Positions 28,445-31,619 of a DNA stretch of 64,000 nt are shown here, in pieces. A model generated the notes under the pieces. That model did not search any database, was not told the origin of the DNA, and worked only from the letters and a program-made list of their open reading frames with translations. Within the stretch, counting starts at the first letter, position 1. Each line of letters opens with the position of its first letter. Source of the stretch: Bacteroidia bacterium (GTDB lineage Bacteria; Bacteroidota; Bacteroidia; Chitinophagales; JAUHXS01); the NCBI GenBank assembly GCA_030426955.1, contig JAUHXS010000007.1, positions 1 through 64,000 on the forward strand, given 5' to 3'. The position numbers and the translations under genes are program-made.

Positions 28445-28972
28445 ATGATAGAGCAAAAACTAAAAAAGGTCATCCGAGATGTTCAGGACTTTCCTATAAA
28501 GGGTGTTTTGTTTAGAGACATTATGCCAATATTTCAGGATCATCAGCTATGTGCAGAAATTGTTGATGCCTTTATTGAAGAACTAAAAGATTACAAAATT
28601 GATGTAATTGCCGGAATTGAGAGTCGAGGGTTTTTATTTGGAATGCTATTAGCCCAACGTCTAAAAGTTCCTTTTGTTCCTATAAGAAAAGAAGGCAAGC
28701 TACCGGGCAATACAACAACTTACTCTTACAATTTGGAATATGGCTCGGCCACCCTAGAAGTTCAAAAATCTTCCTTTAAGGCTGGGCAAAACGTTTTGAT
28801 TCATGATGACCTTTTGGCAACAGGTGGTACAGCTTATGCGGCAAGCGAATTAGTAAAAAAACAAGGTGCAAATGTCAAAGCGTTTGCCTTTTTAGTGACA
28901 TTAGATTTCTTAGATGGCAAGCAACAGCTCTTGAATCATTCATCAAATGTGATTAACTTAGTGAGCTATTAG
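28445..28972 (+). CDS. apt: Adenine phosphoribosyltransferase
   Basis: Apt salvages adenine to AMP using PRPP. The 175-residue length is standard. Diagnostic segments are FPIKGVLFRDIMPIFQD (near the N-terminus), VIAGIESRGFLFG, FVPIRKEGKLPG, and the PRPP-binding motif NVLIHDDLLATGGTA (near 116-130). The 3' end of the gene, including nearly all of its last 14 codons, is present a second time as an exact 42-bp copy at 30397-30438. The gene between the copies is an ATPase. The product is intact. Cytosolic. Confidence 0.96.
   Translation: MIEQKLKKVIRDVQDFPIKGVLFRDIMPIFQDHQLCAEIVDAFIEELKDYKIDVIAGIESRGFLFGMLLAQRLKVPFVPIRKEGKLPGNTTTYSYNLEYGSATLEVQKSSFKAGQNVLIHDDLLATGGTAYAASELVKKQGANVKAFAFLVTLDFLDGKQQLLNHSSNVINLVSY
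28930..28971. repeat. 42-bp direct repeat, left copy (apt 3' end)
   Basis: This exact 42-bp sequence, beginning CTTGAATCATTCATC and ending GTGAGCTATTA, recurs without a mismatch at 30397-30438. It covers the end of the apt coding region up to the second base of the stop codon. The bases before and after differ between the copies, so the repeat is exactly delimited. The two copies bracket the ATPase gene, 1467 bases apart. Confidence 0.97.
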
Positions 28973-29059
28973 AAGCGAGAAACCAGTTTAAAATTAGAGA
29001 GCAGAAACGTGAAATGAGGTGTTTGGGATGAGGAAAGAGAAATAAGGGATTAAACTTTA

Positions 29060-30250
29060 TTAATACAATAGTCCCACCATCCACAGAGGAATTTTTTGTT
29101 TTAGCCCCATCTCGATATCATCAGCCAATATATAGCTGTCTTTTTCTCCTTTTATTTGGAGATCATCCTTGTTTTTTCCTCCAACTTCAAAGGTAAAGCC
29201 ACCGTCTACTATAAAATCTCCTTTGTCAGCTTTGTTAATATCATGCTTTGCATTTATGAATTGATTCAATACAAAAGTTTCTCTTAAGCTTCCAACATCT
29301 GGTGATTCTTTAAGTGCATAACTTAGGTTGGTATTTTCTAGATATATCTTGTCAGGTTTTTGCAACGCAGCTATCCCTTTTCCCTGTTTATTCAAGAAAT
29401 TTAATATTCTGGCTTGCTCCAATGCAATCAAATAATTCATAACACTATCTCTTCCCAATTGCATTTTTCTTGCAATTTTTGAGATATTAGGCTCATAAGG
29501 CACCATTTCTGCTAGTAAGCCCAACAAGCGTTTTATTTTTTTTGTATTCGAAGCAGAGTAATCTTGAATTTGGGCTAGGTCGCTTTCCAGTACGGTATTT
29601 AAGATATTAATTAATCTTTTTGAATATTCATATTCCTCCAATTCTTTTGCAAATGGTAAATACCCTAATTTGAGATACATTTTAAAACTAGGTAATGGTC
29701 GTAGCTTTTTAGTAATAGTATGAGCAATGTTTACATGATTTTGAAGCAATTGCTTTAGGGTAACTCGTTTTATATCCAACCCAAATGTAAAGTTTAAATA
29801 TTCCCTGAATGACATTCCTGGAAGTTCAAAAACACTGGCTCTTCTACTAAGATCAGCCTCGCCCTTAAAAATATCTAATGCAGATGAAGAGCTGAATACT
29901 ACTTTTAGTTCTGGAAAGCTATCATATATTGCTTTAAGCTCTCTAGACCAATTTTCGGCGCGATGAATTTCATCAAGAATTAACAATGTTCCACCATTTA
30001 AAGCGAAAGTCTCAGCTAAGTCAAAAATACTATGTGTGTAAAAATAAGGATGATCAAAAGAGGCATATAAAGAAGTCTTCAGGTCATTCTTGTGTAGGTA
30101 TTGCAATAATAGTGTTGTCTTGCCAGAACCTCTAAACCCCTTTATTGCAATAAGCCGTTGATTCCAATTTATTTCATCAAATAATGGTCTATAATAATCA
30201 GTGCTTAACTGTTTTAATAAATTATTTTGGACACTATAAAGTTGTTGCAT
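29060..30250 (-). CDS. AAA ATPase with DUF4143 C-terminus, on an inserted unit
   Basis: A 396-residue ATP-binding protein of the AAA_14/DUF4143 type. Walker A is GFRGSGKT (38-45), Walker B is LLILDE (89-94), with a sensor stretch VVFSSSSA (117-124) and an arginine-bearing LSRRA (134-138). The C-terminal half holds a winged-helix-like region (YEPNISKIARKMQLGRD) and ends FTFEVGGKNKDDLQIKGEKD ... KIPLWMVGLLY, the PD-(D/E)XK-like ending of this family. These genes are often solitary and patchily distributed in Bacteroidota. Here it is transcribed against both neighbours and flanked by 42-bp direct repeats of the apt end. Function of the family is unknown. The start ATG lies just downstream of palindromic AAGTCA sites. 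Confidence 0.88.
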   Translation of the reverse strand: MQQLYSVQNNLLKQLSTDYYRPLFDEINWNQRLIAIKGFRGSGKTTLLLQYLHKNDLKTSLYASFDHPYFYTHSIFDLAETFALNGGTLLILDEIHRAENWSRELKAIYDSFPELKVVFSSSSALDIFKGEADLSRRASVFELPGMSFREYLNFTFGLDIKRVTLKQLLQNHVNIAHTITKKLRPLPSFKMYLKLGYLPFAKELEEYEYSKRLINILNTVLESDLAQIQDYSASNTKKIKRLLGLLAEMVPYEPNISKIARKMQLGRDSVMNYLIALEQARILNFLNKQGKGIAALQKPDKIYLENTNLSYALKESPDVGSLRETFVLNQFINAKHDINKADKGDFIVDGGFTFEVGGKNKDDLQIKGEKDSYILADDIEMGLKQKIPLWMVGLLY

Positions 30251-30266
30251 GCATATTGATCTTGTT

Positions 30267-30330
30267 ACAAGTCAAATTTAAATATTTTTTGACTTAAATT
30301 CAAGTCAAAATTTTTAATAAAATGACTTGT
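30267..30330. promoter_or_regulatory. Four AAGTCA half-sites upstream of the ATPase gene
   Basis: Between the ATPase start and the right 42-bp repeat, the hexamer AAGTCA or its complement TGACTT occurs four times in alternating orientation: ACAAGTCA (30267-30274), TTTTGACTT (30287-30295), AAGTCAAAA (30302-30310) and TGACTTGT (30323-30330). The inner pair is a perfect palindrome (TTTTGACTT / AAGTCAAAA) and the outer pair mirrors it. The layout looks like a cooperative operator controlling the ATPase promoter, but no regulator is encoded in the unit. Confidence 0.5.
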
Positions 30331-30396
30331 TTTCGGATCACTATACTGTTGGGGTTTTGGGTTTTTAGATTTCCTTATATTCAACTGCGCCCTATG

Positions 30397-30438
30397 CTTG
30401 AATCATTCATCAAATGTGATTAACTTAGTGAGCTATTA
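30397..30438. repeat. 42-bp direct repeat, right copy
   Basis: Exact second copy of the apt 3'-end sequence (first copy 28930-28971). It ends 11 bases before the acyl-CoA dehydrogenase start, so an uninterrupted ancestral arrangement would have placed apt directly before that gene. It is not translated as part of any recognised gene here. Confidence 0.97.
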
Positions 30439-30449
30439 AAAAATTTGGA

Positions 30450-31619
30450 ATGGAAACTGCAGTAGAAAATAAAACAGGATTAGATTTTGGGCTAAACGAA
30501 AATCAGCAAATGATTGCTGATATGGTTCGTGATTTTGGCGAGAAGCACATCAAACCCAAAATGATGGAGTGGGATGAAAGTCAAGAATTTCCGGTTGATG
30601 TTTTCAAGAAGTTAGGAGAGCTAGGATTAATGGGTGTTTTGGTGCCCACGGAATATGGTGGATCAGGATTCGGTTATTTTGAATACGTTACTGCTGTTTC
30701 TGAAATTGCTAAGATAGATGGCTCAATAGGTTTATCCGTTGCTGCTCACAACTCTTTATGTACAGGTCATATTTTACAGTTTGGCAATGAAGAACAAAAG
30801 CAAAAGTATTTGCCCAAATTGGCTACAGCAGAATGGATTGGTGCTTGGGGACTTACCGAGCCCAATACTGGATCCGATGCCATGCGAATGAAATGTGTCG
30901 CAAAAAAAGACGGTAATGACTGGATTTTGAACGGCGCGAAATGTTTTATCACACACGGTAAATCTGGCGATGTTGTAGTGGTACTGGCAAGAACCGGGGA
31001 GCTGCTAGACTCAAGAGGGATCACAGCTTTTGTAGTTGATAGAGGAACTCCAGGATTGAAAGCAGGTAAGAAAGAAGACAAACTAGGAATGCGTGCTTCA
31101 GAAACAACTGAAGTTATTTTTGAGGATTGTCGGGTACCACAGGAAAATGTCTTAGGAGAAGTTGGGGAAGGCTTCATTCAAGCAATGAAAGTATTAGACG
31201 GAGGAAGAATATCTATTGCGTCACTAGGTCTAGGTATTGCAAAAGGAGCTTACGAGGCGGCCTTAGCATACTCAAAAGAAAGGGAACAATTTGGCAAACC
31301 CATTTCGGATTTTCAAGCAATTGCTTTTAAATTAGCTGACATGGCAGTTAAAATTGAGAATGGTGAATTGTTGACTTTCAAGGCAGCAGACTTGAAAAAC
31401 AAAGGACAAAAAATGACCAGAGAATCTGCTGAGGCAAAATACTATACCTCTGAAATAGCTGTTGAAATTGCCAACGATGCCATTCAGGTATTTGGTGGTT
31501 ACGGCTATACGAAAGAATTCCCAGTAGAAAAGCACTACCGTGATGCCAAGCTTTGTACAATTGGTGAAGGAACTTCTGAAATCCAGAAGTTAGTGATTGC
31601 TAAGAGTATACTACAATAG
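30450..31619 (+). CDS. Acyl-CoA dehydrogenase
   Basis: A 389-residue FAD flavoprotein that oxidises acyl-CoA thioesters to 2-enoyl-CoA, feeding electrons to electron-transfer flavoprotein. Family signatures are WGLTEPNTGSDAMRMKC (FAD and substrate contacts), WILNGAKCFITHG, and the C-terminal GGYGYTKEFPVEKHYRDAKL followed by IGEGTSEIQKLVI, where E373 is the expected catalytic base. Length and domain order match short-chain or glutaryl-type enzymes; the chain-length preference cannot be read. The start ATG is 11 bases after the right 42-bp repeat. It probably formed part of the apt transcript before insertion of the ATPase unit. Confidence 0.94.
   Translation: METAVENKTGLDFGLNENQQMIADMVRDFGEKHIKPKMMEWDESQEFPVDVFKKLGELGLMGVLVPTEYGGSGFGYFEYVTAVSEIAKIDGSIGLSVAAHNSLCTGHILQFGNEEQKQKYLPKLATAEWIGAWGLTEPNTGSDAMRMKCVAKKDGNDWILNGAKCFITHGKSGDVVVVLARTGELLDSRGITAFVVDRGTPGLKAGKKEDKLGMRASETTEVIFEDCRVPQENVLGEVGEGFIQAMKVLDGGRISIASLGLGIAKGAYEAALAYSKEREQFGKPISDFQAIAFKLADMAVKIENGELLTFKAADLKNKGQKMTRESAEAKYYTSEIAVEIANDAIQVFGGYGYTKEFPVEKHYRDAKLCTIGEGTSEIQKLVIAKSILQ

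What the first reader, a model, noticed from the sequence alone, without database searches (positions are those of the whole stretch)
28930..30438. ATPase gene inserted beside a 42-bp duplication of the apt 3' end
Seen directly: the last 42 bases before the apt stop codon's final G are repeated exactly at 30397-30438, and the only gene between the copies is a DUF4143-type AAA ATPase in the opposite direction. Without the unit, apt would sit about 14 bases before the acyl-CoA dehydrogenase, with which it would form an operon. The layout resembles an integration event that duplicates a gene's 3' end, but the unit (1467 bases) holds no recombinase. Inference: a single-gene mobile ATPase unit using the apt end as an attachment site, or moved by homology-directed template switching.
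Basis: partly seen in the sequence, partly recalled or inferred. Interest (0 to 1): 0.72.

Follow-up and report, generated by a model that had tools for sequence, protein, structure and literature searches.

The report
Accessory ATPase gene inserted behind apt
A lone ATPase gene of a candidate anti-phage family was inserted between two old operon neighbours and left an exact 42-bp copy of the end of the upstream gene on its far side, a footprint already described for restriction-modification genes and found here around two unrelated families of mobile single genes, so the ATPase itself is probably not what moved it.

Summary
28930-28971 and 30397-30438 are identical, and one AAA_14/DUF4143 ATPase gene (29060-30250, minus strand) lies between them. 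In 9 of 17 relatives of the same order with a clear apt, the acyl-CoA dehydrogenase gene follows apt directly on the same strand, never with an ATPase between, so the unit is an insertion. Of 157 homologues with adequate flanks, 21 are flanked by direct repeats, against 0 of 169 ordinary genes. Some of the 21 are dispersed or tandem repeats, but several duplicate the end of a neighbouring gene. The targets are unrelated and share no attachment sequence. In diverged pairs the copies differ mostly at third codon positions, suggesting two alleles rather than one site copied at insertion. The decisive control: YhcG (PF06250), an unrelated patchy single-gene family, shows the same footprint as often (10 of 68, p = 0.83). 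[quoted passage not shown] the ATPase is cargo. A site-specific or self-mobile ATPase is not supported. No nucleotide-level empty site was found. Side finding: about half of the ATPase family has twin 16-bp promoter palindromes, mostly 32-33 bp apart.

The parts
28445..28972 (+). apt (adenine phosphoribosyltransferase-like), intact, target gene of the insertion
   Evidence: ORF of 175 aa; Pfam Pribosyltran E 6e-17; orthologues 48-57% identical in the order
28930..28971 (+). first copy of the 42-bp repeat, the 3' end of apt
   Evidence: exact match to 30397-30438
28972..29059 (.). spacer between apt and the end of the ATPase gene, purine-rich
   Evidence: sequence; a 36-bp stretch has an 86% match at an intergenic place elsewhere in the genome, C18
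29060..30250 (-). AAA_14/DUF4143 ATPase gene, 396 aa, the inserted cargo
   Evidence: matches PADLOC PDC-S01 profiles, best E 6.5e-28; AlphaFold2 model pLDDT 95
30258..30339 (-). three operator-like sites with a 33-bp period upstream of the ATPase: 30258-30273, 30291-30306, 30324-30339 (the middle one 14/16 palindromic, the outer two degenerate)
   Evidence: read by eye in the same architecture as homologue L133 and 77 of 159 homologues; the automatic score of the window copy itself (31) is below the cut-off of 34
30397..30438 (+). second, solitary copy of the apt 3' end
30450..31619 (+). acyl-CoA dehydrogenase gene, the ancestral downstream neighbour of apt
   Evidence: follows apt on the same strand in 9 of 17 relatives

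Best explanation
The 1467-bp unit is an accessory single gene, a PDC-S01-like AAA/DUF4143 ATPase, inserted between apt and the acyl-CoA dehydrogenase gene with a long target duplication. Shown: the structure, the conserved adjacency without the gene in relatives, and a family-wide excess of flanking repeats, several of which duplicate gene ends. Inferred: incoming DNA from a related genome carried the ATPase together with its own copy of the apt 3' end; recombination or template switching at that shared stretch added the segment beside the resident apt end instead of replacing it, leaving apt intact on one side and a solitary 42-bp remnant before the dehydrogenase on the other. Host recombination does this; the ATPase is cargo. 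Insertions at gene ends persist because the flanking gene stays whole. Deletion across the 42-bp repeat should restore the ancestral junction.
For: Exact repeat. Adjacency apt - dehydrogenase in 9 of 17 relatives, no ATPase between. Patchy ATPase. 21 of 157 homologues with flanking repeats against 0 of 169 ordinary genes. Unrelated targets: apt, the CCA-adding-enzyme-like gene of L230, the DUF255-like gene of L216, the conserved gene of L086. Differences between copies fall on third codon positions in 34 of 67 cases, p = 0.002, and the solitary copies are about as close to orthologues as the gene-attached copies. YhcG shows the same rate, 10 of 68. Precedent: insertion with long target duplication of R-M genes (PMC1643837; PMC3031569), and an R-M system lost or restored across 80-bp repeats (PMC7494987).
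Against: No nucleotide-level empty site was found in any case. The window's two copies are identical, so they cannot show donor origin. The third-codon signal is modest, the pairs were chosen after inspection, and L315 goes the other way. Several repeats counted in the 21 are dispersed or tandem repeats. YhcG also has a nuclease-like domain, so a nuclease-linked route shared by both families is not excluded.
Confidence: 0.6

Rival explanations
1. The ATPase is itself the mover: its PD-(D/E)XK-like C-terminal domain cuts gene ends, and repair from an ATPase-bearing molecule inserts the gene (homing without a classical homing endonuclease), with long staggered or resected ends giving the duplication.
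For: The family is described as an ATPase fused to a PD-(D/E)XK-superfamily domain (PMC12988326); D345 and E355 are conserved; homologues are inserted at several unrelated gene ends.
Against: YhcG shows the footprint at the same rate. The usual catalytic lysine at E+2 is glycine in 73 of 79 homologues. Targets share no sequence.
Confidence: 0.1
2. A plain target-site duplication: a transposase or other enzyme acting in trans made a long staggered cut and fill-in produced the repeats.
For: Perfect identity of the window's copies; sharp repeat edges in L052, L086, L099 and L113.
Against: In L230 and L086 the solitary copy has kept a coding-like pattern, and it is about as close to orthologues as the gene's own end. 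In L216 and L230 the similarity runs to the stop codons, which differ in L230. No transposase in the unit, and repeat lengths vary widely.
Confidence: 0.13
3. A remnant or trans-mobilised integrative element: the repeats are attL and attR of a site-specific recombinase acting in trans, and the ATPase is what is left between them.
For: A gene 3' end is duplicated and restored, as in elements that integrate at gene 3' ends (established knowledge).
Against: No recombinase in the unit. Homologous units lie at unrelated genes, sometimes at 5' ends (L099), with repeats from about 22 to 200 bp and no shared core.
Confidence: 0.1
4. Tandem duplication of a segment holding the apt end and the ATPase, followed by loss of one ATPase copy, without any horizontal insertion at this place.
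For: Tandem ATPase arrays with repeated spacers exist (L095/L272, L213).
Against: It needs an ancestral apt-ATPase order, which none of 17 relatives shows, and a second, precise loss.
Confidence: 0.05

Closest known systems
Insertion with long target duplication of restriction-modification genes (Nobusato et al. 2000, Gene 259:99; Furuta et al. 2010, NAR 38:2428; originals not held here, known through PMC1643837, PMC3031569, PMC3154945)
   Same: A self-standing accessory gene flanked by long, variable direct repeats of the target, no transposase or recombinase, patchy distribution.
   Different: Described for R-M genes, mostly in Helicobacter; here an ATPase of a candidate defence family (and YhcG) in Bacteroidota. 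The original cases rest on strain pairs with an empty site; here the empty site is shown only as gene order.
HpyAII R-M locus with 80-bp flanking repeats (Aras et al. 2001, cited in PMC7494987)
   Same: Direct repeats flank an accessory system; recombination across them removes or restores it.
   Different: Loss and restoration were not observed here; the repeat is 42 bp.
PDC-S01 candidate defence family (PADLOC; PMC12988326)
   Same: The protein matches PDC-S01 profiles and has the AAA - winged helix - DUF4143 layout.
   Different: Its glycine-rich EVGGK motif departs from the usual E-x-K; no defence activity was tested.
Integrative elements that target gene 3' ends (tyrosine-recombinase islands)
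   Same: A gene 3' end is duplicated and the gene is left intact.
   Different: No recombinase, no common attachment core among homologous units, variable repeat length.

Membership tests
Insertion with long target duplication | inserted segment flanked by long direct repeats of the target | tested here: met
   42 of 42 identical, spacing 1467
Insertion with long target duplication | empty site with one copy in a relative | tested here: inconclusive
   adjacent genes without the ATPase in 9 distant relatives; no close genome held
Insertion with long target duplication | no mobility gene in the segment | tested here: met
   only one gene between the repeats
Site-specific integrative element | recombinase gene in the element | tested here: not met
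   none between the repeats
Site-specific integrative element | common attachment core shared by related elements | tested here: not met
   repeats of L052, L086, L099, L113, L216 and L230 are unrelated in sequence and target
PDC-S01 / AAA_14-DUF4143 ATPase | profile match over ATPase and C-terminal part | tested here: met
   six PDC-S01 profiles, best E 6.5e-28 over residues 29-344; AAA_14 and DUF4143 above the Pfam cut-offs
PDC-S01 / AAA_14-DUF4143 ATPase | anti-phage activity | not testable with these tools
   needs an experiment
PD-(D/E)XK nuclease (C-terminal domain) | D ... E-x-K catalytic residues | tested here: inconclusive
   D345 and E355 conserved in 76 and 75 of 79; E+2 is glycine in 73 of 79, a conserved lysine lies at E+6 (K361, 75 of 79)

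The most novel reading that the evidence does not exclude
A general, transposase-free route inserts single accessory and defence genes of different families at gene ends in Bacteroidota, adding each together with its own copy of the flanking gene end; roughly one in seven such genes would still show the footprint, and it would be a main way in which single-gene systems spread without mobile elements.
Probability: 0.35. Interest if true: 0.65.

Novelty: new member of a known kind. Interest (0 to 1): 0.42.

Why it matters
Many candidate defence genes are single, patchy and carry no mobility genes, and how they move is unclear. The footprint described for R-M genes is here seen around two unrelated single-gene families and is absent from the ordinary genes tested, which points to recombination on flanking gene ends as a shared route. 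It gives a simple screen (compare the two flanks of every accessory gene) and a testable prediction: strains lacking the gene should have one copy of the repeat.

Tried and rejected
Empty site at nucleotide level: flanks of L086, L230, L216, L099 and the YhcG locus L371 were searched in their genera; flanking genes were found at about 66-90% identity but no contiguous empty junction. Plasmid copies (Parabacteroides, Segatella, Aliarcobacter, Persicobacter): no informative empty relatives and no flanking repeats. Phage link: only 2 phage records and 5 viral contigs, so not a phage gene. Palindromes as element ends: L107 has a twin palindrome behind the gene too, but over 71 homologues downstream copies are no more common than in shuffled sequence (7 against 6), so they are read as promoter elements. 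Larger repeats around L095, L144, L194, L111 and L213/L155 were set aside as dispersed or tandem repeats, although they are included in the count of 21. L090 (15 bp) is near the chance level. In one search the second-palindrome column is void (masked letters matched themselves); one search replaces it. Searches read only part of the loci because the files are split; one search replaces.

Full report
What is there. The window holds apt (28445-28972, plus strand), then an AAA_14/DUF4143 ATPase on the minus strand (29060-30250), then an acyl-CoA dehydrogenase (30450-31619, plus). The last 42 bases of apt before the final G of its stop codon recur exactly at 30397-30438; extending to 45 bases gives 98%. 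The start-to-start distance is 1467. In the second copy the stop codon reads TAA and lies 10 bases before the dehydrogenase ATG. The repeat is unique in the window, and no other single gene there is framed this way.

Is it an insertion? The genome has no held relative in its own family, so apt was traced in the order. Of 17 relatives with a clear apt (48-57% identical), nine have the acyl-CoA dehydrogenase next to it on the same strand, with gaps from overlap to about 216 bases, and none has an ATPase between. The ATPase is patchy: 136 of 398 genomes of the order have any match, fewer have a full-length close homologue. The ATPase gene is lower in G+C than the genes beside it. So the ATPase was inserted into an older pair. 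This empty site is shown by gene order, not by nucleotides.

Is it repeated elsewhere? 161 full-length homologues were collected with their flanks from the order and the class. Comparing the 700 bases on each side, 21 of the 157 with adequate flanks have a direct repeat scoring 15 or more, while 0 of 169 other genes from 20 of these genomes and the window do (the single control hit was by its sequence another ATPase, in a repeat array). Some repeats are dispersed or tandem sequences, but several are ends of a neighbouring gene: L086 (70 bp with two differences, the conserved 3' end of a gene present across the genus), L230 (about 190-200 bp, 3' end of a CCA-adding-enzyme-like gene), L216 (3' end of a DUF255-like gene, the solitary copy ending 22 bases before the start of the next gene) and L099 (22 bp at the 5' end of a gene). 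Gene names for these neighbours are my reading of the translations, not a database match. The window's case fits this group.

How do the copies differ? Over six coding pairs (three ATPase, three YhcG) 34 of 67 differences fall on third codon positions (p = 0.002); in L086 both differences are silent, in L230 seven of ten are third-position, and the two copies in L230 end in different stop codons. Compared with sister-species genes, the solitary copy is about as similar as the gene-attached copy. A copy left behind by a staggered cut and then freed from selection should instead decay evenly. I read this as two alleles meeting: the incoming DNA brought its own gene end. The signal is modest, the pairs were chosen after inspection, one pair (L315) goes the other way, and the window's identical copies cannot add to it.

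Is the ATPase the cause? The same test on YhcG_C (PF06250), an unrelated patchy single-gene family of the same order, gave 10 of 68 loci with flanking repeats, against 21 of 157 for the ATPase (Fisher p = 0.83). Among them are duplicated gene 5' ends (L315, L332, L371). The footprint therefore belongs to how such genes arrive, not to this ATPase. A caution: YhcG also has a nuclease-like domain, so a control without one is still needed.

Mechanism. [quoted passage not shown] 2000, cited in PMC1643837 and PMC3031569), where flanking repeats of 80 bp are also reported to let an R-M system be deleted and restored (PMC7494987). Steps shown: insertion, duplication, varied targets, no recombinase, equal rate in an unrelated family. 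Steps inferred: arrival with a donor copy of the gene end, recombination or template switching at that end, persistence because the flanking gene stays whole. A circular intermediate and a template switch would leave the same product and are not separated here.

The cargo. The protein matches six PDC-S01 profiles. That candidate family is described as an ATPase fused to a PD-(D/E)XK-superfamily domain and as the fourth most common defence across prokaryotes, with experimental proof pending for most such candidates (PMC12988326). The predicted structure is confident (pLDDT 95); the nearest solved structure is the archaeal AAA+ ATPase 2fna. D345 and E355 are conserved, but the residue two after E355 is glycine and a conserved lysine lies at E+6, so nuclease activity is open.

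A side finding on regulation. 77 of 159 homologues carry, within 180 bases upstream of the gene, two similar 16-bp palindromes; in 67 of these 77 the spacing is 32 or 33 bp; shuffled sequence gives 4 of 159 and other genes 3 of 98. The palindrome sequence differs from homologue to homologue while the spacing stays. Copies downstream are no more common than by chance. This looks like a self-regulated promoter. The window has three sites of this kind with a 33-bp period (30258-30339), the outer two degenerate; they were recognised by eye and the window's own automatic score is below the cut-off.

Verdict. It is a new member of a known kind; the generality across two families is the more interesting part.

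Noticed in passing
window 30258-30339 and the upstream regions of 77 of 159 ATPase homologues: Twin 16-bp palindromes 32-33 bp apart in the promoter region; their sequence changes between homologues while spacing is kept, as expected for an autoregulator and its operators.
   Followed up: partly
L315, L332, L364, L371 (YhcG loci): YhcG genes are also flanked by long direct repeats, several of them copies of a neighbouring gene's 5' end.
   Followed up: partly
L095 and L272 (same genome region): Several DUF4143-type ATPases in a row separated by near-identical intergenic repeats of 100-200 bp, perhaps a platform for amplification or exchange.
   Followed up: no
L089, around 1424-1498 and 2779-2853: The ATPase lies between inverted repeats whose translation looks like type I R-M specificity-subunit conserved regions (my reading).
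   Followed up: no
L107 3136-3191: A second twin palindrome with the same 16-17-16 layout lies just behind the ATPase gene, possibly the scar of a lost neighbouring copy.
   Followed up: no
window 28987-29022 and G000:C18:297311-297346: The purine-rich spacer behind apt shares a 36-bp stretch (86%) with an intergenic place elsewhere in the genome; the origin of such sequences is unknown.
   Followed up: no
L086 3034-4167: Next to the repeat-flanked ATPase lies a second, different AAA ATPase, so such genes may cluster at the same sites.
   Followed up: no
A1 columns for residues 345-361 of the window protein: The conserved EVGGKxK motif replaces the usual E-x-K of DUF4143/PD-(D/E)XK domains, with a conserved lysine at E+6.
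   Followed up: partly
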